Made by a program: the position numbers and the translations under genes. A DNA stretch of 64,000 nt. It comes from Variovorax paradoxus. Its GTDB lineage: Bacteria; Pseudomonadota; Gammaproteobacteria; Burkholderiales; Burkholderiaceae_C. The notes under the pieces were generated by a model. That model searched no databases. It was given only the letters and a program-made list of their open reading frames with translations, and was not told the DNA's origin. This document shows, piece after piece, positions 10,126-62,149 of the stretch. Location of the stretch: assembly GCF_030811855.1 (NCBI RefSeq), contig NZ_JAUSRN010000001.1, positions 124,001-188,000 on the forward strand, read 5' to 3'. Each line of letters opens with the position of its first letter. The first letter of the stretch is position 1.

Positions 10126-10950
10126 GGTGGTGCGCGCAAGAACGTCGCGCGTAACGCCGCCCAGCACGCGTTCTTGCGCCCGGGCGTGCCCGTAGCCCCC
10201 CATCACGATCAGGCCGGCCTCCAGCGCCAATGCGCGGGCCAGCAGGGCATCGCCGAGCCCGCCCCGGGCTGCCGCGCAGCACTCGACATCGGCCCGGATG
10301 CCGTGTCGCAGGAGCCAGCCGTCCAGATCGCCGGGGCATGGCGTGCCGGCCGATTCGGCGCCGCCGTCTTCCAGCAGCGACACCACCGTGACGTGGCTTG
10401 CCTTGCGCATCAGCGGCAGCGCGCCGTACACCGAGAGTGCGGCCTCCCTGCCGCCGTCCCAGGCCACCAGGACGCGCTCCATCGCGCCATCGAAACGCCC
10501 CCTGCGCGGCACGATGAGAACGGGCCGGCCCGCATGCAGCATGGCCTCTTCGGGCAGTTGCCGCGCCCTGGCGTCCACCGCCGCCCGGTGGTCCGCCTGC
10601 CCGACGACGATCAGGTCGCTCGCACGGCCGTGGGCGATGACGGCATCCACCGGGTCGCCATCCACCAGCCGGATTTCGCAGGACGGGGAGCCACCGGCGT
10701 CGCGCAGCCGGCAGCGAAAGACGTGCGCGACGGCCTCGGCCCGCCGGCGCTGGTGCAGCGAGGCCGCGGCAACGAGAGGGGCGATTTCTGCCGCCCGCGC
10801 GAGCGCCGCCGCCGCATCGAACGGCACGCCCGTGGGGGCGATGCCGAGCAGGTGGCTGTCGTGCTGCCTTGCCAGCCGGGCCGCGAGCAGGGTGCGGGCT
10901 TCGCACCGCTCGGTGTGGTCGAGGTGGACGGCGATCGTCGAGAGCGTCAT
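10102..10950 (-). CDS. Tandem-domain universal stress protein
   Basis: 282 aa with two USP folds. The N-terminal one starts MTLSTIAVHLDHTERC; the C-terminal one ends with GGYGHARAQERVLGGVTRDVLARTTTPVLMAH, a nucleotide-binding loop variant shared with three other tandem USPs here. Start at 10950 chosen because paralogues begin directly with the 'xxSILVHLD' strand and GAAAGAG precedes it; ATG 11019 (AAAGG upstream) would add 23 residues and is a real alternative. Own FNR-type box at 11086 and intrinsic terminator at the end. Confidence 0.88.
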   Translation of the reverse strand: MTLSTIAVHLDHTERCEARTLLAARLARQHDSHLLGIAPTGVPFDAAAALARAAEIAPLVAAASLHQRRRAEAVAHVFRCRLRDAGGSPSCEIRLVDGDPVDAVIAHGRASDLIVVGQADHRAAVDARARQLPEEAMLHAGRPVLIVPRRGRFDGAMERVLVAWDGGREAALSVYGALPLMRKASHVTVVSLLEDGGAESAGTPCPGDLDGWLLRHGIRADVECCAAARGGLGDALLARALALEAGLIVMGGYGHARAQERVLGGVTRDVLARTTTPVLMAH

Positions 10951-11085
10951 GGTCTCTTTCGGGACGACGATGTCGAGACCGGCGCCGTGCTCAGTGTGGA
11001 GAGTGAAACCGGTGCTCATGGCGATGTGCCTTTTGGACATGTGATCCGAATGCCCGAATGCTGACCCCATGAAGCGCCCGGTGCC

Positions 11086-11099
11086 TTGCGCGGGATCAA
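11086..11099 (-). promoter_or_regulatory. FNR-type box for USP 10102-10950
   Basis: TTGATCCCGCGCAA on the minus strand. CAGCAT (11063-11058) lies at class II -10 spacing, with a predicted start near 11051. Confidence 0.7.
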
Positions 11100-11165
11100 G
11101 GTTGCGCAACCTGTCGCATGCCGGTGGATCGCGAGGCGCGGCCCTCGCCTTGATCTGCGTCGGGC

Positions 11166-38663: not shown

Positions 38664-40199
38664 ATGAAAAAGATCCCCATGGCCGCTCGCGGCAGTGCGG
38701 GATGCCGCAGGCTGTTTCAACGTCTCGTCCTCTTTCCGGCCTGCGCTGGCGCGCTTGCGGTGCTCGCCGCCTGCGCCGCTGCGCCAACATCAGCCCCGGC
38801 TGTGAGCGCCCTCCCCTCCGCCGACGTCTCTCTTGCACCGGCTTTTTCTTCTCTGGTCGCGAGCCGCAGTGCCTCGGTGGTCGACATCAGTACCCTGCGC
38901 ATCGGCCGCGACGAGAGTCCGGAAGACATCGAACTCGAGATCGCACCCGAGCGCGACTTTGCCGACCGCCTCGCCTGGCCGATGCGTGCCAATGTGCGAG
39001 TCAGCCAGATCCGCGACCTCGCCTCCGGCGTGATCGTGAGCGCCGACGGCTTGATCCTGACCAGCGCCCACGTGGTCGCGCACATCGACGAGGTCCAGGT
39101 CCGCCTGGACGACGGACGCCGCTTCACTGCACGCGTGGTCGGAGCGGACAAGCGAACCGACGTCGGCCTCCTGAAGATCGACGCCACCGCCTTGCCCGTC
39201 GCCGCCATCGGCGATTCGTCACGGCTCGCGCCCGGCGATTGGGTGGCCGCCATCAGCGCGCCATTCGGTTTCCACGGCAGCGTCACGGCGGGTGTGGTGA
39301 GCGCCGTGGACCGCATCCTGGCCGGCGGCGGCGACGTTCCCTTCATCCAGACCGACGTGGCCATCAACCCGGGCAGTTCGGGCAGTCCGCTCTTCGACAG
39401 CCGCGGCGAGGTGATCGGCATCAACTCGATGATCTACAGCGGCAGCGGCGGCTACATGGGTTTGTCGTTCGCCGTGCCCATCAACCTGGCGATGCGGATC
39501 GCGACGCAGCTGCGCGCGGGCGGCACCGTCCGGCGCGCCCACCTGGGCGTCGAGTTCCAGGAAATGACGCCCGCGCTGGCCCAATCGTTCGCGCTGCCCA
39601 AGGCTTCCGGTGCGCTGGTGGTCCGCGTCGATGCGGGCAGCCCCGCACACGCCGCGGGGCTGGTGCAGGGAGACATCGTCACCGCCTTCGATGGCATTCC
39701 GGTCTCGCGGCTGACCGATCTGCTGCAGCAGGTCGGCGAGCGTGTGCCGGGCGACCGCAGCCGCATGGAGGTGTGGCGGCGCGGTGCACAGCGCACCGTG
39801 TGGGTCACGCCCTCCGAAGAACGGACCGCCAAAGCGGCCTTTCCGCCCGCCGCCGCGCCGGAATGGAACGACGGCCTGGGCCTCAGCCTTGGCGAAGTGT
39901 CCGCCGCGCAAAAGGCGCAGCTGCGCCTCGACAGCGGCCTCTTGGTGCGCGAGGCCACCGGGCTGGCCCGCAGCGAAGGCATTCGCGCCGGCGATTTCAT
40001 CGTGGCCGTGAACGATCTGCGCGTCGATCGTGTCGAACAGTTCAAGCAAGCCTTGTCGCGTTTGCCGGCCGGCCGATCGGTCGCGCTGCTTGTCATGCGC
40101 GATATGCGCCTCGCGTACGTCGCCGTCTGGCTGCCGGAGCAGCGCCCCACTGGACGAGCCTCGTTTCTCCGAGCACCAACTCCAACGAGAGCACCATGA
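38664..40199 (+). CDS. Deg-type trypsin-like serine protease with two PDZ domains
   Basis: 511 aa. Lipobox-like LAAC (Cys37) at the end of the signal sequence suggests a lipoprotein. Trypsin fold with His136 (TSAHVV), Asp166 (KRTDVGLL) and Ser239 (NPGSSGSPL); PDZ1 about 300-385 (HLGVEFQEMTPALAQ), PDZ2 about 405-490. Periplasmic protein quality control. RBS AAGGA 6 nt before ATG 38664, chosen over 38565. The stop overlaps the DksA/TraR-like start. Confidence 0.93.
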   Translation: MKKIPMAARGSAGCRRLFQRLVLFPACAGALAVLAACAAAPTSAPAVSALPSADVSLAPAFSSLVASRSASVVDISTLRIGRDESPEDIELEIAPERDFADRLAWPMRANVRVSQIRDLASGVIVSADGLILTSAHVVAHIDEVQVRLDDGRRFTARVVGADKRTDVGLLKIDATALPVAAIGDSSRLAPGDWVAAISAPFGFHGSVTAGVVSAVDRILAGGGDVPFIQTDVAINPGSSGSPLFDSRGEVIGINSMIYSGSGGYMGLSFAVPINLAMRIATQLRAGGTVRRAHLGVEFQEMTPALAQSFALPKASGALVVRVDAGSPAHAAGLVQGDIVTAFDGIPVSRLTDLLQQVGERVPGDRSRMEVWRRGAQRTVWVTPSEERTAKAAFPPAAAPEWNDGLGLSLGEVSAAQKAQLRLDSGLLVREATGLARSEGIRAGDFIVAVNDLRVDRVEQFKQALSRLPAGRSVALLVMRDMRLAYVAVWLPEQRPTGRASFLRAPTPTRAP

Positions 40200-58535: not shown

Positions 58536-59158
58536 TCCAGACGACTCCCCAGCGCGTTGATCGCCGCCACCGTGATGGCACTGCCGCCCAGGCGTCCGGC
58601 CACGATGCAACAGGGCGCGGGCTGTTCGGCCCACAGCGCGTCTTTCGATTCCGCCGCGCCGACGAAGCCGACCGGACAACCGATGATCGCCGCCGGCCGC
58701 GGGCAGGCCGGATCCTGCAGCATGTTCAGCAGATGGAACAAGGCCGTCGGTGCGTTGCCGATGGCCACCACGGCGCCCTGCAGTCGAGGTCGCCACAGTT
58801 CCAGCGCGGCGGCAGACCGGGTGGTCGACATGGCCGCGGCCAGACCAGGCACCGCAGGGTCGTGCAAGGTGCACACCACCTCGTTGCCGCCCGGCATGCG
58901 CGAGCGGGTCACGCCTTCGCTGACCATGCGTGCATCGCACAGGATGGGCGCACCGGCCGCCAGCGCCGCCCGCGCCGCGCGGGTGAAGCCGGGCTGGAAG
59001 CGCAACTGCGCTTCCAGCCCGATCAGGCCGGCCGCGTGGATCATGCGCACCGCGACGGGCTCGTCGTCGGCATCGAAGCGCGAGAGATCGGCCTCGGCCC
59101 GGATCATGGCGAAAGAGCGTCGGTAGATTTCCGCGCCATCGGTTTCAAAGACGTGCAT
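58532..59158 (-). CDS. cobH: Precorrin-8X methylmutase
   Basis: 208 aa: AEIYRRSFAMIRAEADLSRF, AVRMIHAAGLIG (catalytic His region), GAPILCDARMVSEGVTRSR, AIIGCPVGFVGAAESKDAL. Moves the C11 methyl to C12, forming hydrogenobyrinate. ATG overlaps the cobG stop. Confidence 0.96.
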   Translation of the reverse strand: MHVFETDGAEIYRRSFAMIRAEADLSRFDADDEPVAVRMIHAAGLIGLEAQLRFQPGFTRAARAALAAGAPILCDARMVSEGVTRSRMPGGNEVVCTLHDPAVPGLAAAMSTTRSAAALELWRPRLQGAVVAIGNAPTALFHLLNMLQDPACPRPAAIIGCPVGFVGAAESKDALWAEQPAPCCIVAGRLGGSAITVAAINALGSRLE

Positions 59159-60354
59159 CAGGGCATTCCGATGAGTGAGCACAAGGCTTCAGGGGACAGT
59201 CGGGTTTGCACGGGCGCGTCCCAGGCGCATCCGCTGCGCACGAGATCGAAGGCGCCGTTGCGGCCCACCAAAGTGGCATCGGCCGGGCGCGCACGTGCGC
59301 AACCCTTGGCGCAGCCGGACACGTGCAGGCTGCGGGGCGCACTGGCGCCCGCCTCAGCCAGCCCCGAAGCAAGCGCGCGGGCGACCGCATGGGTCGCCAC
59401 CGTTGCCGAGGCACACGAAGGCGCGCCGGGGCAGGCATCGACGCGCAGCAAGGGATCGCCGGCCACGGTGATGAAAGCACTCGTATCGCACCACCGGCCC
59501 CCTTCCAGGACCAGGGCGCGATGCGGCGTCAGGCGCAGCCCCGCGGCGCCGCTGTCGCGCAACAGCGTGGCGAGGGCCGCAGCTTCGATCTGTCCGAAAG
59601 GCACGCCGTAGACCGGTCCGAGCGAGGACATGCCGGGTGTGGGCAGCGAGGCCGAAGCGGCCGCGGGTTCGAGCGGCTGCGGGCCGTCGGCCCAACTGAA
59701 GATCTGTTGATGGCGACGCATGCGCCGCGATGCCGGTTCGACCACCTTGGCCGTCGCCGCAAACCATCCGGCCATCGCCAATGCCGCATCCACCGCCCCG
59801 GCGCGGGACACGGGATGTCCGGCCGCGGCGCCGTCGGCGCGCACCAAGAGCCTCCCCGAGCGGGCCCGCTCGATACGCACGTCGGCCGGGGCCGCAGCCA
59901 GGACCGGCGCCGCCCCCGCATCCACTGCGAACCCGAACTTGGGCGGCAACGCGGGCAGTTCGTTCAGGCGCGACAACAATTCCGTGGCGATGCCTTCGGT
60001 GTCATCGCCCGCTTGCCAGCAGGGCGCCACGAGAACCAGCGGCCAGGCTTCTCGCGTGGCGTCCGCATCGGCCAGGCCGAGGGCGCAGAGTGCATCGATC
60101 ACCGCGCCGTGGGCGTCGGGCGTCACGCCACGCAACTGCAGGTTGGCACGATGGGTCAGGTCGATGAGCCCCGAGCCCAGGCGCGAGGCCAGCTCGCACA
60201 ACGCCAGGGCCTGCGCGCTCGTCAAGCGCGCCAGCTGCGGCCGCACCCGCACCAGCAGGCCATCGCCGGAAGCCATGGCGCGATGCGCGCCGGGGCACCA
60301 ACCCTTGGCGGCAGGGCGCAGCGCGGCGGGCACTGGGTGAGCTGCGTGAGACAT
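59158..60354 (-). CDS. cobG: Precorrin-3B synthase
   Basis: 398 aa, nitrite/sulfite-reductase-like fold. N-terminal ferredoxin-like half (GDGLLVRVRPQLARLTSAQ), Fe-S cluster Cys in ACPGAPSC and SGCAKGC. Oxygen-dependent hydroxylation at C20, diagnostic of the aerobic pathway. It lies beside genes otherwise linked to low-oxygen life. Confidence 0.94.
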   Translation of the reverse strand: MSHAAHPVPAALRPAAKGWCPGAHRAMASGDGLLVRVRPQLARLTSAQALALCELASRLGSGLIDLTHRANLQLRGVTPDAHGAVIDALCALGLADADATREAWPLVLVAPCWQAGDDTEGIATELLSRLNELPALPPKFGFAVDAGAAPVLAAAPADVRIERARSGRLLVRADGAAAGHPVSRAGAVDAALAMAGWFAATAKVVEPASRRMRRHQQIFSWADGPQPLEPAAASASLPTPGMSSLGPVYGVPFGQIEAAALATLLRDSGAAGLRLTPHRALVLEGGRWCDTSAFITVAGDPLLRVDACPGAPSCASATVATHAVARALASGLAEAGASAPRSLHVSGCAKGCARARPADATLVGRNGAFDLVRSGCAWDAPVQTRLSPEALCSLIGMP

Positions 60355-60374: not shown

Positions 60375-61058
60375 TCACTCGGCTCGGCTGGCGAAGCGAT
60401 GTTCCGCGCCCCAGCGCTGTGCCCAGGCGGCGCAGCGGCCGATGGCGCGCGCGGCTTCGTCGAAATCGATGATGACGACATGCCGCGCAGCCTCGGGTGC
60501 CGCCGGCTGCTCCAGCGTCCGGCCATCGGTCAGCAGCCAGAGCCAGGATTCGGCCGGGCCGTCGCGACGCTCGGCGCGGCGCAGCACCTTGTCGGCCTGT
60601 GCCAGGGCATGCGCCAGCGGCGTGCCCCCGCCACCGCCCAGCGCCCGGACCTTTTCCCTGCAAGACGCGCGCGCCCGACCGGGCGGCAGCCGCAGCTCGA
60701 CGCCCTGACCACCGAAGCTCAGCATGGCCACGCTGTCGCCGGCGCGCGCTGCCTGCTCGATCAGCCAGGTGGCGTGCCCCTTGGCCAGCGCCAGCCGCCC
60801 GCGCTGGCGCATCGAGCCGGAGGTGTCGAGCACGATCAGGTGCAGACGCGCCGGTTGCACCGAGCGCTGGCTGTAGCGCAGATGCCCGCCTTGCAAAGGC
60901 CGCGGGCCCTTGGCCAGCAGGGTGGGCAACCATGCGATGCCAGCCCGCGAAGGCCCGGCATCCGGACGTGCAGGCGGCGCCAGCAATGGCTGTCGGGCTG
61001 GATTCAGCCACCGCAGACCTCCGCGCCCGGCGCGCACGAGGCGGCTGCGGTGGCTCAC
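60375..61058 (-). CDS. Cobaltochelatase VWA (ChlD/CobT-like) subunit part
   Basis: As a stand-alone frame, 227 aa from GTG 61058 (overlapping the AAA stop as GTGA): Arg/Pro-rich linker, then a VWA domain with the MIDAS motif DTSGSM, TPLAHALAQADKVL and LLTDGRTLEQ. It has no usable ribosome site of its own (AGGAGG lies 18 nt away). More likely it is expressed as the C-terminal half of a 591-aa AAA-VWA fusion made by -1 frameshifting at 61061-61067. Partner of CobN in cobalt insertion. Confidence 0.88.
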   Translation of the reverse strand: MSHRSRLVRAGRGGLRWLNPARQPLLAPPARPDAGPSRAGIAWLPTLLAKGPRPLQGGHLRYSQRSVQPARLHLIVLDTSGSMRQRGRLALAKGHATWLIEQAARAGDSVAMLSFGGQGVELRLPPGRARASCREKVRALGGGGGTPLAHALAQADKVLRRAERRDGPAESWLWLLTDGRTLEQPAAPEAARHVVIIDFDEAARAIGRCAAWAQRWGAEHRFASRAE

Positions 61059-61082
61059 GCTTTTTTTGCGGGCCACCCTCCT
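61006..61082 (-). promoter_or_regulatory. Programmed -1 frameshift signal, AAA/VWA junction
   Basis: On the minus strand, in order: AGGAGG (61082-61077); 9 nt; slippery GCA-AAA-AAA (A7 at 61067-61061); 5-nt spacer containing most of the zero-frame stop; then a perfect 11-bp stem AGCCACCGCAG (61055-61045) pairing with CTGCGGTGGCT (61016-61006), whose 28-nt loop itself holds a GC hairpin. A -1 slip leads from ...K-K-A-stop into ...K-K-S-V-S, the VWA frame. Confidence 0.8.
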
Positions 61083-62149
61083 TCGGGCTGCACGCGGGCG
61101 GTGGCTTCGGGGATCGGCGGCAGCGCGCCCCAGTCGCCCATGGGGGAACTGTTGGCGGAGGGTGCGGAACTGCCGGCGGATGTCCGCGCCGCCTGCCGCG
61201 TGTCGGCATTCGGCTCTGGCGCCGGGCTGCTCCTGCCCTCCTCCCGTCGATGGGCCAATGCCAGTTCCGCCACCGCATCGACATCGTCCGTCGTGACTTC
61301 GGTGCGGTCCTCGAATGCGGCGAGCGCACGCGCCGCTCTCAGCATCACCAGGTCGGCCCGCATGCCGTCCACGCCAGCCGCGAGCGCGCATTCCGCAGCG
61401 CGCTGCAGCACGGCATCGGACCACGCCAGGCGCACCAGCCCGGCGCGGGCTGCAACGACCGCCGCAGCCAGGCGGGCCTGTTCACCGGCATGGGCCTCGG
61501 CCACTCCGAGCGGGTCTTCGTCGAAGCGCAAACGCGCGCGCACGATCGCCATCCGCTGCCCGGCTTCGCTCGGGTTGGCCAGCGCCACCGACAGGCCGAA
61601 ACGATCCAGCAACTGGGGGCGCAGTTCGCCTTCCTCGGGATTCATGGTCCCGACCAGCACGAAGCGTGCGGCGTGCTGTTGCGAAATGCCGTCGCGCTCG
61701 ACGGTGTTCACGCCGCTGGCGGCGACATCGAGCAAGGCGTCGACCAGCGCGTCGGGCAGCAGGTTGACTTCATCGACGTACAGCACCCCATGGTGGGCGC
61801 GCGTCACGAGGCCCGGTGCCAGGCGCAGCCGCCCGTCGCGGAGCACGTCCTCGACGTCGAGCGTTCCCACCAGCTGCTCGACGGTGGCGGACAGCGGCAA
61901 GGTGACGAAGGGCGCAGCCGATGAAGCGGGCGTAGGCGGCAGCAACGCGGCCAAGGCCCGCGCCGCGGTCGACTTCGCGGTGCCGCGCGGCCCGCTGATG
62001 AGCACGCCACCGATACCGGGGTCGATGGCCGCGAGCAACAGCGCGCGTTGCAGCATGGGTTGACCGATCAGCGCACTGAAGGGGAAGGTCGTGCGACTGG
62101 CGGGCTCGAGCTTCGGGCCGGCGATCGCTTCGGTGGAATGGGGTGTCAT
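61055..62149 (-). CDS. Cobaltochelatase AAA+ (ChlI/CobS-like) subunit
   Basis: 364 aa: Walker A GPRGTAKST (53-61), Walker B VLYVDEVNLLPD, sensor region LVGTMNPEEGELRPQLLDRFGL, the Mg-chelatase lid, and a C-terminal Pro/Ser-rich linker (EEGRSSPAPEPNAD...) of the kind that joins AAA and VWA in ChlD. ATG 62149 shares its A with the cobN TGA. Ends at TGA 61057-61055 inside the frameshift signal. Confidence 0.94.
   Translation of the reverse strand: MTPHSTEAIAGPKLEPASRTTFPFSALIGQPMLQRALLLAAIDPGIGGVLISGPRGTAKSTAARALAALLPPTPASSAAPFVTLPLSATVEQLVGTLDVEDVLRDGRLRLAPGLVTRAHHGVLYVDEVNLLPDALVDALLDVAASGVNTVERDGISQQHAARFVLVGTMNPEEGELRPQLLDRFGLSVALANPSEAGQRMAIVRARLRFDEDPLGVAEAHAGEQARLAAAVVAARAGLVRLAWSDAVLQRAAECALAAGVDGMRADLVMLRAARALAAFEDRTEVTTDDVDAVAELALAHRREEGRSSPAPEPNADTRQAARTSAGSSAPSANSSPMGDWGALPPIPEATARVQPEGGWPAKKA

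What the first reader, a model, noticed from the sequence alone, without database searches (positions are those of the whole stretch)
61006..61082. Complete -1 frameshift cassette between the cobaltochelatase AAA and VWA frames
Seen directly: AGGAGG, 9 nt, A7 in the frame GCA-AAA-AAA-GCG-TGA, 5 nt, then a perfect 11-bp stem with a structured 28-nt loop. A -1 slip enters the VWA frame exactly. The VWA frame has no correctly spaced ribosome site, and the spacing mimics the dnaX signal. Known: chlD genes in some bacteria were reported to yield both cobaltochelatase subunits by programmed frameshifting. Inference: this locus makes a 364-aa AAA subunit and a 591-aa AAA-VWA fusion from one mRNA, setting subunit ratio.
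Basis: partly seen in the sequence, partly recalled or inferred. Interest (0 to 1): 0.88.

Follow-up and report, generated by a model that had tools for sequence, protein, structure and literature searches.

The report
Chelatase frameshift signal in B12 operon
In a bacterial vitamin B12 operon, two overlapping reading frames meet at seven A's flanked by a ribosome-binding-like motif and an RNA-hairpin sequence conserved in relatives; the signal is predicted to make some ribosomes slip back one base, so that one gene would likely give both a short and a long subunit of the cobalt-inserting enzyme, a new example of a known trick.

Summary
The motif lies on the minus strand between a 364-aa AAA+ frame and a VWA frame one base back, inside cobN–(AAA/VWA)–cobG. 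It is best read as a -1 ribosomal frameshift cassette of the published fs-chlD/cobaltochelatase kind, not a sequencing error or two ordinary genes. 130 of 138 distinct relatives with the -1 layout carry an in-phase A_AAA_AAA (88) or A_AAA_AAG (42); such heptamers occur at 0 of 38,870 other codon positions upstream in the same AAA genes. The hairpin is rebuilt with compensatory changes: 63 of 88 keep at least 7 of 8 core pairs, against at most 8 of 88 in registers slid by 1–3; at least 38 two-sided changes on a tree. The host genome has cobN but no detected separate chlI, cobS or cobT. The Shine-Dalgarno-like element is not universal (33 of 88 A7 loci) but exceeds synonymous shuffles (mean 6.7, maximum 12). 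Frameshifting at this very locus, its efficiency and the subunit ratio are untested; a published A7 chelatase cassette gave 10% in E. coli (PMC3711429). New member of a known kind.

The parts
61055..62149 (-). AAA+ frame, 364 aa plus TGA: small (ChlI/CobS-like) subunit and N-terminal part of the predicted fusion
   Evidence: Pfam AAA_lid_2 1.7e-16 and Mg_chelatase 1.2e-14; N-terminal part of TIGR02442 putative cobaltochelatase 1e-112 and TIGR02030 1.1e-92, both below those models' whole-protein cut-offs
60375..61061 (-). VWA frame (-1 relative to AAA), 228 aa after the slip: C-terminal part of the predicted medium subunit
   Evidence: Pfam VWA_2 1.2e-12; matches TIGR02442 positions 460-585; third-codon-position excess in the -1 frame between stem and VWA domain across relatives
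61061..61067 (-). slippery heptamer A_AAA_AAA, in phase (GCA AAA AAA)
   Evidence: in-phase A_AAA_AAR in 130 of 138 distinct -1 loci; none at 38,870 other codon positions
61055..61057 (-). zero-frame stop TGA, one codon after the slip site
   Evidence: the heptamer ends exactly one codon before the stop in 127 of 130 loci
61077..61082 (-). internal Shine-Dalgarno-like AGGAGG, 9 nt upstream of the heptamer (putative stimulator; not universal)
   Evidence: SD-like core with its last base at -12 to -8 (7-11 nt between) in 33 of 88 A7 loci against 6.7 +/- 1.8 in synonymous shuffles
61006..61055 (-). downstream hairpin, 11-bp stem (61055-61045 with 61016-61006) and 28-nt structured loop
62149..63999 (-). 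cobN, C-terminal part in the window; stop overlaps the AAA start by one base (TGATG)
   Evidence: Pfam CobN-Mg_chel 9.5e-201; Pfam match over the whole gene at genome C1:186227-189583
59158..60354 (-). cobG-like precorrin-3B synthase, next gene downstream
   Evidence: TIGR02435 7.7e-67, 225.9 bits against a cut-off of 234.8, so just under

Best explanation
[quoted passage not shown] Shown: the parts, their spacing, their conservation and the compensatory changes in the stem. Inferred: most ribosomes read GCA AAA AAA GCG TGA and release the 364-aa AAA+ small subunit; a minority, held by the hairpin 5 nt downstream and by AGGAGG pairing to 16S rRNA upstream, would slip both lysine tRNAs back one base on A_AAA_AAA, pass the stop, and make a 591-aa AAA-VWA medium subunit. 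The two would assemble with CobN as the aerobic cobalt chelatase, small subunit in excess. In this genome no other gene for either subunit was detected.
For: Anatomy. Relatives: of 162 distinct loci with both domains, 138 have the VWA in -1, 21 are fused, 2 are +1, 1 is same-frame after a stop. 130 of the 138 have an in-phase A_AAA_AAA (88) or A_AAA_AAG (42), one codon before the stop in 127, with none at 38,870 other codon positions in the 900 nt upstream. The A-run is exactly 7 in 83 of 88 A7-type loci. Stem: core pairs +6..+13 with +53..+46 are at least 7/8 intact in 63 of 88, against 0-8 of 88 in registers slid by 1-3; in the AAG type 36 of 42 against 0. At least 38 two-sided pair changes by parsimony on an AAA-protein tree (sum over the eight core pairs; no null was run for this count). 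SD-like core 33 of 88 against a maximum of 12 in 300 synonymous shuffles. The stretch between stem and VWA domain (codons 20-70) evolves as coding in the -1 frame: differences at codon positions 1/2/3 are 2730/2302/5946 over 316 pairs alike enough to compare. Context: cobN in the held flank in 121 of 130; own genome has cobN, no CobS match, no CobT match, and no other match to this AAA protein above 32.4 bits or to the ChlI model above 26.6 bits. Published: same gene family, A_AAA_AAA cassette at 10% and runs of 9 and 11 A's at 40 and 63% in E. coli (PMC3711429, passages).
Against: No measurement at this locus. The excess of folding energy over synonymous shuffles is modest in a fixed 60-nt window (51 of 130 loci below z -2; for this locus 5 of 60 shuffles fold as well, though 0 of 78 other windows of the same gene region do), so the case rests on covariation. 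25 of 88 A7-type and 6 of 42 AAG-type loci keep fewer than 7 of 8 core pairs in the fixed register; some of these have another loop length, some only a weak helix (e.g. L118, L127). A GTG overlaps the stop (GTGA) here, so some re-initiation cannot be ruled out. One cobN-adjacent relative (L120) has a plain fusion with no slip site and no second ChlI-like or CobS match in its genome, so two products are not indispensable in every lineage. 5 of 23 sampled -1 genomes also carry a CobS-like gene (528-541 bits, below the 558.55 cut-off). In published work A_AAA_AAA is less slip-prone than A_AAA_AAG in E. coli (PMC5009743, passage).
Confidence: 0.92

Rival explanations
1. Translational coupling: the ribosome ends at TGA and re-initiates on the overlapping GTG (61058), making a separate VWA protein; the A7 and stem are incidental.
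For: GTGA overlap is present here. Some start codon (ATG, GTG or TTG) lies between -15 and +20 of the stop in the VWA frame in 11 of 88 A7-type and 4 of 42 AAG-type loci, and 107 of 130 have one somewhere in the first 60 codons after the slip (23 have none). PMC3711429 reports that coupling and recoding can coexist in some clusters (passages).
Against: A start codon overlaps the stop this way in only 5 of 88 A7-type loci (3 GTG, 2 ATG) and 0 of 42 AAG-type; a start within 45 nt with an SD-like core is found in 1 of 88 and 2 of 42. AGGAGG is 18 nt from this GTG. 92 of 130 loci have no ATG in the first 60 VWA-frame codons after the slip. It does not explain the in-phase heptamer or the covarying stem.
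Confidence: 0.04
2. Transcriptional slippage on the A-run gives mRNAs with an extra A, fusing the frames without ribosomal frameshifting.
For: Homopolymer; five A7-type loci have 8-10 A's. PMC3711429 says such slippage sites are often runs of eight or more, but also argues that dnaX genes with shorter runs, one of them seven A's, may use it (passages); its measured efficiency rose with A-run length.
Against: 83 of 88 have exactly 7, and 40 of 42 AAG-type loci have only 6. The stem at fixed spacing with compensatory changes and the SD-like element at dnaX-like spacing are translational stimulators.
Confidence: 0.03
3. A sequencing error or a broken gene: one base is missing or extra and the true gene is a simple fusion.
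For: Homopolymers are error-prone; one relative (L011) has 6 A's and another frame relation.
Against: The same -1 relation with an in-phase heptamer in 130 distinct loci from many assemblies; a plasmid record annotated as two genes reads the same way.
Confidence: 0.01

Closest known systems
fs-chlD / 'magnesium chelatase' -1 frameshift cluster (PMC3711429, 2013; PMC9227772, 2022; Antonov 2020, Mol Biol Evol, not held)
   Same: Same gene pair, same -1 direction, same A_AAA_AAR slip site, downstream structure, cobN and no small-subunit gene. The 2013 cluster already includes Burkholderia, Delftia and Pseudomonas, and an A7 cassette was tested in E. coli.
   Different: This strain is not named in the text I read. 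An internal Shine-Dalgarno-like stimulator enriched over synonymous shuffles, and a tree-based count of compensatory stem changes, were not seen in what I read of those papers, and searches listed no other paper on it (56: 0 held papers with chlD + frameshifting + Shine-Dalgarno). Antonov 2020 and all supplements were not seen.
E. coli dnaX -1 frameshift signal
   Same: Heptamer of A's, 5-nt spacer, 11-bp hairpin (dnaX figures from PMC8861025, passage), upstream SD-like stimulator (PMC3711429 figure legend).
   Different: A_AAA_AAA rather than A_AAA_AAG, a 28-nt structured loop, unrelated gene; here the slip would make the longer product, in E. coli dnaX the shorter.
Separate BchI/ChlI + BchD genes or CobS + CobT
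   Same: Same two subunit types of the chelatase motor.
   Different: There the subunits are encoded by two genes; here by one gene with a recoding site.

Membership tests
fs-chlD frameshift cobaltochelatase | AAA (ChlI-like) and VWA halves in overlapping frames, -1 relation | tested here: met
fs-chlD frameshift cobaltochelatase | in-phase A_AAA_AAR slip site at the overlap | tested here: met
fs-chlD frameshift cobaltochelatase | downstream stimulatory RNA structure | tested here: met
   presence and conservation of the hairpin; that it stimulates was not tested
fs-chlD frameshift cobaltochelatase | cobN present, no separate small-subunit gene in the genome | tested here: met
   own genome (99.97% complete): cobN yes, CobS none, CobT none, no other ChlI-like match above 32.4 bits
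fs-chlD frameshift cobaltochelatase | frameshift product observed | not testable with these tools
   needs reporter or mass spectrometry; published for other members only (PMC3711429)
dnaX-type three-part -1 signal (works like) | SD-like element, heptamer and hairpin at dnaX-like spacing | tested here: met
   for this locus; the SD-like part in only 33 of 88 A7 relatives; dnaX spacer and stem length, its SD spacing recalled
translationally coupled gene pair | conserved start of the second gene close to the stop, with ribosome site | tested here: not met
   start with SD within 45 nt in 1 of 88 and 2 of 42; none properly spaced here
transcriptional slippage site | homopolymer of about 8 or more | tested here: not met
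   7 A's here; exactly 7 in 83 of 88; the length limit is not strict

The most novel reading that the evidence does not exclude
The chelatase frameshift is a modular device: slip site and hairpin are the near-fixed core, while the internal Shine-Dalgarno-like stimulator is repeatedly gained and lost and acts as an evolutionary tuning knob for the small-to-medium subunit ratio of the cobalt chelatase.
Probability: 0.45. Interest if true: 0.5.

Novelty: new member of a known kind. Interest (0 to 1): 0.38.

Why it matters
It is a clean, statistically supported case of a housekeeping enzyme whose two subunits appear to be set by one recoding site, in a system that gene callers split in two: a plasmid relative is annotated as an ATP-binding protein plus a VWA protein that starts 134 nt past the stop. 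The compensatory changes show that the hairpin, whose sequence was described in print as not strongly conserved (PMC5009743), is conserved as structure. The patchy Shine-Dalgarno-like element gives natural pairs with and without a stimulator for testing what sets the subunit ratio.

Tried and rejected
Considered and rejected: sequencing error, translational coupling, transcriptional slippage (see rivals). Folding energy in a fixed 60-nt window was only moderately discriminating, so I turned to an anchored-helix test (82 of 130 loci within the best 5% of anchors of their own gene, 37 with none as good; for this locus 0 of 155) and to covariation. The core register was taken from this locus and from the best-helix distribution, then applied to all 88 A7-type and all 42 AAG-type loci without dropping any; loci with another loop length count as broken there. 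Over a longer span (14 pairs) slid registers from -6 to +6 gave 0.331-0.453 paired against 0.653 at the true one (A7 type). A 28-sequence DNA alignment held a hand-picked part of the 64 loci and was used only to look.

The suggestion printed in PMC5009743 that one stem strand is purine-rich and the other pyrimidine-rich (possible triplex, cation binding): the 5' arm core is 62% pyrimidine in A7-type and 60% in AAG-type loci, only a weak bias; no support here, not excluded.

Fused relatives as a 'reverse dnaX' (slip giving the short form): 19 of 21 fused genes have no in-phase A_AAA_AAR at all; L148 has one far upstream in the AAA part; L075, from an AT-rich 0.4-Mb genome with A-runs throughout, has several in its AAA-VWA linker, which I could not judge. 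20 of 21 have no cobN in the held flank of at most 1.5 or 3 kb, so they may serve another chelatase; not followed.

Simple form of 'frameshift because no small-subunit gene': all 21 fused and all 23 sampled -1 genomes (23 of the 130 -1 loci were given) have a single ChlI-like match at E <= 1e-25, so lack of a separate ChlI does not by itself separate the two designs in this sample. CobS-like hits of 528-568 bits occur in 5 of 21 fused and 5 of 23 -1 genomes.

Rows left out: of 190 loci, 15 lacked one domain (10 no VWA, 5 no AAA; one of the former, L114, is cut by its contig end) and 13 repeated another locus, leaving 162. Each genome search fetched at most its 30 best loci: 11 weaker places and 30 were never examined, and one search kept 80 of at least 575. 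Of the 138 -1 loci, 8 without a heptamer (AAA scores 314-403 bits, no cobN in the flank; they look like separate BchI-type genes followed by another gene, not confirmed) were left out of the stem tests.

Not done: tRNA-Lys inventory of the genome, structure prediction, the search for homologous proteins, any search of viral or metagenome contigs.

Full report
What was checked. The minus strand reads AGGAGG, 9 nt, A7 in the phase GCA AAA AAA GCG TGA, 5 nt, and an 11-bp perfect stem with a 28-nt loop, at the coordinates given. The AAA frame is 364 aa (61055–62149) and the VWA frame lies one base back, ending at 60375. NCBIfam places the two frames on the N-terminal and C-terminal parts of one model, TIGR02442 'putative cobaltochelatase' (best stretches at positions 84–328 and 460–585, each frame alone below the whole-protein cut-off). 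cobN lies upstream with a one-base overlap and a CobG-like gene downstream. Two cobalamin riboswitch aptamers lie upstream of cobN on the same strand, outside the window (L191 6650–6902 and 10868–11128, i.e. genome C1 about 192.6–192.9 kb and 196.9–197.1 kb); the genes between were not examined.

Organism. Its genus is Variovorax by inference: loci of same-genus genomes (L008, L013) have the same junction as named Variovorax contigs (L077, L091) on contigs of the same length.

Conservation. With searches in genus (29 of 61 genomes with a match), family (40 of 150), order (5 of 250), class (12 of 321) and phylum (60 of 398) (own genome included in each, thresholds 1e-30 for the first two and 1e-70 for the rest, alignment query in the last), at most 30 loci fetched per search, and one scan of named genomes (best 80 kept of at least 575), I held 190 loci. 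The set therefore leans to near relatives. 162 distinct ones have both domains: 138 with VWA in -1, 21 fused, 2 in +1, 1 in the same frame after a stop. In 130 of the 138 an A_AAA_AAA or A_AAA_AAG heptamer lies in phase in the overlap; in 127 it ends exactly one codon before the stop. The same heptamers occur at none of 38,870 other codon positions in the 900 nt upstream in these AAA genes. Outside the slip site, Lys codons in the A7-type AAA genes are 89 AAA to 254 AAG. The 8 -1 loci without a heptamer are a different class: AAA scores 314–403 bits against 444–547 for the 130, and no cobN in the held flank.

Hairpin. The 5' arm begins 5 or 6 nt after the heptamer in 72 of the 82 loci whose helix is within the best 5% of anchors of its own gene. 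In the A7 type the core pairs +6/+53 to +13/+46 are at least 7/8 complete in 63 of 88; sliding the partner by -3, -2, -1, +1, +2, +3 gives 2, 0, 0, 0, 0 and 8 of 88. In the A_AAA_AAG type (its named members are all Pseudomonas) the register is 14 bases shorter and 36 of 42 keep at least 7/8, against 0 in slid registers. Two-sided changes are frequent (27 loci at +9/+50, 24 at +10/+49, 39 at +13/+46). These counts are of sequences, not events; by parsimony on a tree of the 88 AAA proteins the eight core pairs need at least 38 changes that alter both sides, G-U merged with its parent pair (6+1+0+9+6+1+5+10; unpaired cells treated as missing, no null run). +9/+50 lies at codon positions 2 and 1 of the VWA frame, so protein coding alone does not explain it. 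Energy tests are weaker: mean -32.0 kcal/mol against -26.2 for synonymous shuffles, with 51 of 130 loci below z -2.

Shine-Dalgarno-like element. A GGAG/GAGG/AGGA core has its last base at -12 to -8 from the heptamer (7–11 nt between) in 33 of 88 A7-type loci, against 6.7 ± 1.8 (maximum 12 in 300 shuffles) when synonymous codons are shuffled. It needs at least 15 changes on the tree and is absent from the second Variovorax lineage except L025. So it looks selected but labile. This corrects the impression that the cassette is conserved as a whole.

Why frameshifting and not two genes. Start codons within 45 nt of the stop with an SD-like core are rare (1 of 88 and 2 of 42). The stretch between stem and VWA domain (codons 20–70) evolves as coding in the -1 frame: differences by codon position 2730/2302/5946 in 316 pairs at least 60% alike; within the stem codons the third-position excess is absent or small (43/21/26 in the window's own lineage, 256/82/290 in the second Variovorax lineage), as a structural constraint would give. 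Pairs there are not independent, so these are descriptive counts. A-runs are 7 in 83 of 88, shorter than the runs usually linked with transcriptional slippage.

Genome context. The own genome has cobN (1252.7 bits), no CobS match, no CobT match, and its only strong ChlI-type match is this gene. cobN lies in the held flank of 121 of 130 -1 loci with a heptamer against 1 of 21 fused. The exception, L120 (Acidovorax sp. SUPP3334), is fused without a slip site; its genome shows no second ChlI-like match and no CobS match.

Known or new. The phenomenon is published. PMC3711429 (2013; passages) reports a cluster of 23 -1 fs-genes in Pseudomonas, Burkholderia, Delftia, Herpetosiphon and two archaeal genera, and 63, 40 and 10% frameshifting in E. 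coli for runs of 11, 9 and 7 A's. PMC5009743 (2016; one section and passages) describes the conserved A_AAA_AAR and asks whether it is regulated. PMC9227772 (2022; whole main text, no supplements) proposes that fs-chlD gives small and medium cobaltochelatase subunits. PMC8861025 (outline, abstract and passages) and PMC4066793 (passages) were used for dnaX and heptamer background. Antonov 2020 was not held. The locus is therefore a new member of a known kind. What I did not see in those texts is the compensatory-change count and the patchy SD-like stimulator; searches listed nothing else on it, which does not cover unheld papers such as Antonov 2020.

Shown and inferred. Shown: sequence, frames, domain content, conservation, covariation, gene content. 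Inferred: that ribosomes slip here, how often, that both products are made, and that the ratio matters for the chelatase.

Noticed in passing
L191:6650-6902 and 10868-11128 (minus), upstream of cobN, outside the window: Two cobalamin riboswitch aptamers (RF00174, 64.5 and 93.7 bits) on the operon's strand: the cluster is likely B12-controlled.
   Followed up: partly
L193:3976-5753 (Methylibium sp. T29 plasmid pT29A): A cob cluster on a plasmid carries the same cassette by eye (A8), annotated as two genes with the VWA start 134 nt past the AAA stop: the frameshift region is lost in annotation.
   Followed up: partly
L120 (Acidovorax sp. SUPP3334): cobN-adjacent AAA-VWA gene fused in frame, with no A-run of six or more and no A_AAA_AAR, among relatives that use the cassette; no second ChlI-like or CobS match.
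   Followed up: partly
L012-L031, L097 against L001, L006-L010: Two lineages of this locus, about 60% identical in AAA protein to each other, coexist in one genus, suggesting replacement or horizontal transfer.
   Followed up: no
L070-L076, L098, L115, L119, L124, L137, L148, L153, L155, L180-L184: Fused AAA-VWA genes with no cobN in the held flanks and a single ChlI-like match per genome; function unclear. L075 has several in-phase A_AAA_AAA in its linker.
   Followed up: partly
window:57512-57596: ARAGORN calls a tRNA-Asp on the plus strand that Rfam does not support (no match in the window); probably a false call.
   Followed up: partly
L011: One cobN-adjacent relative has six A's instead of seven, which changes the frame relation to +1; assembly error or natural variant.
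   Followed up: no
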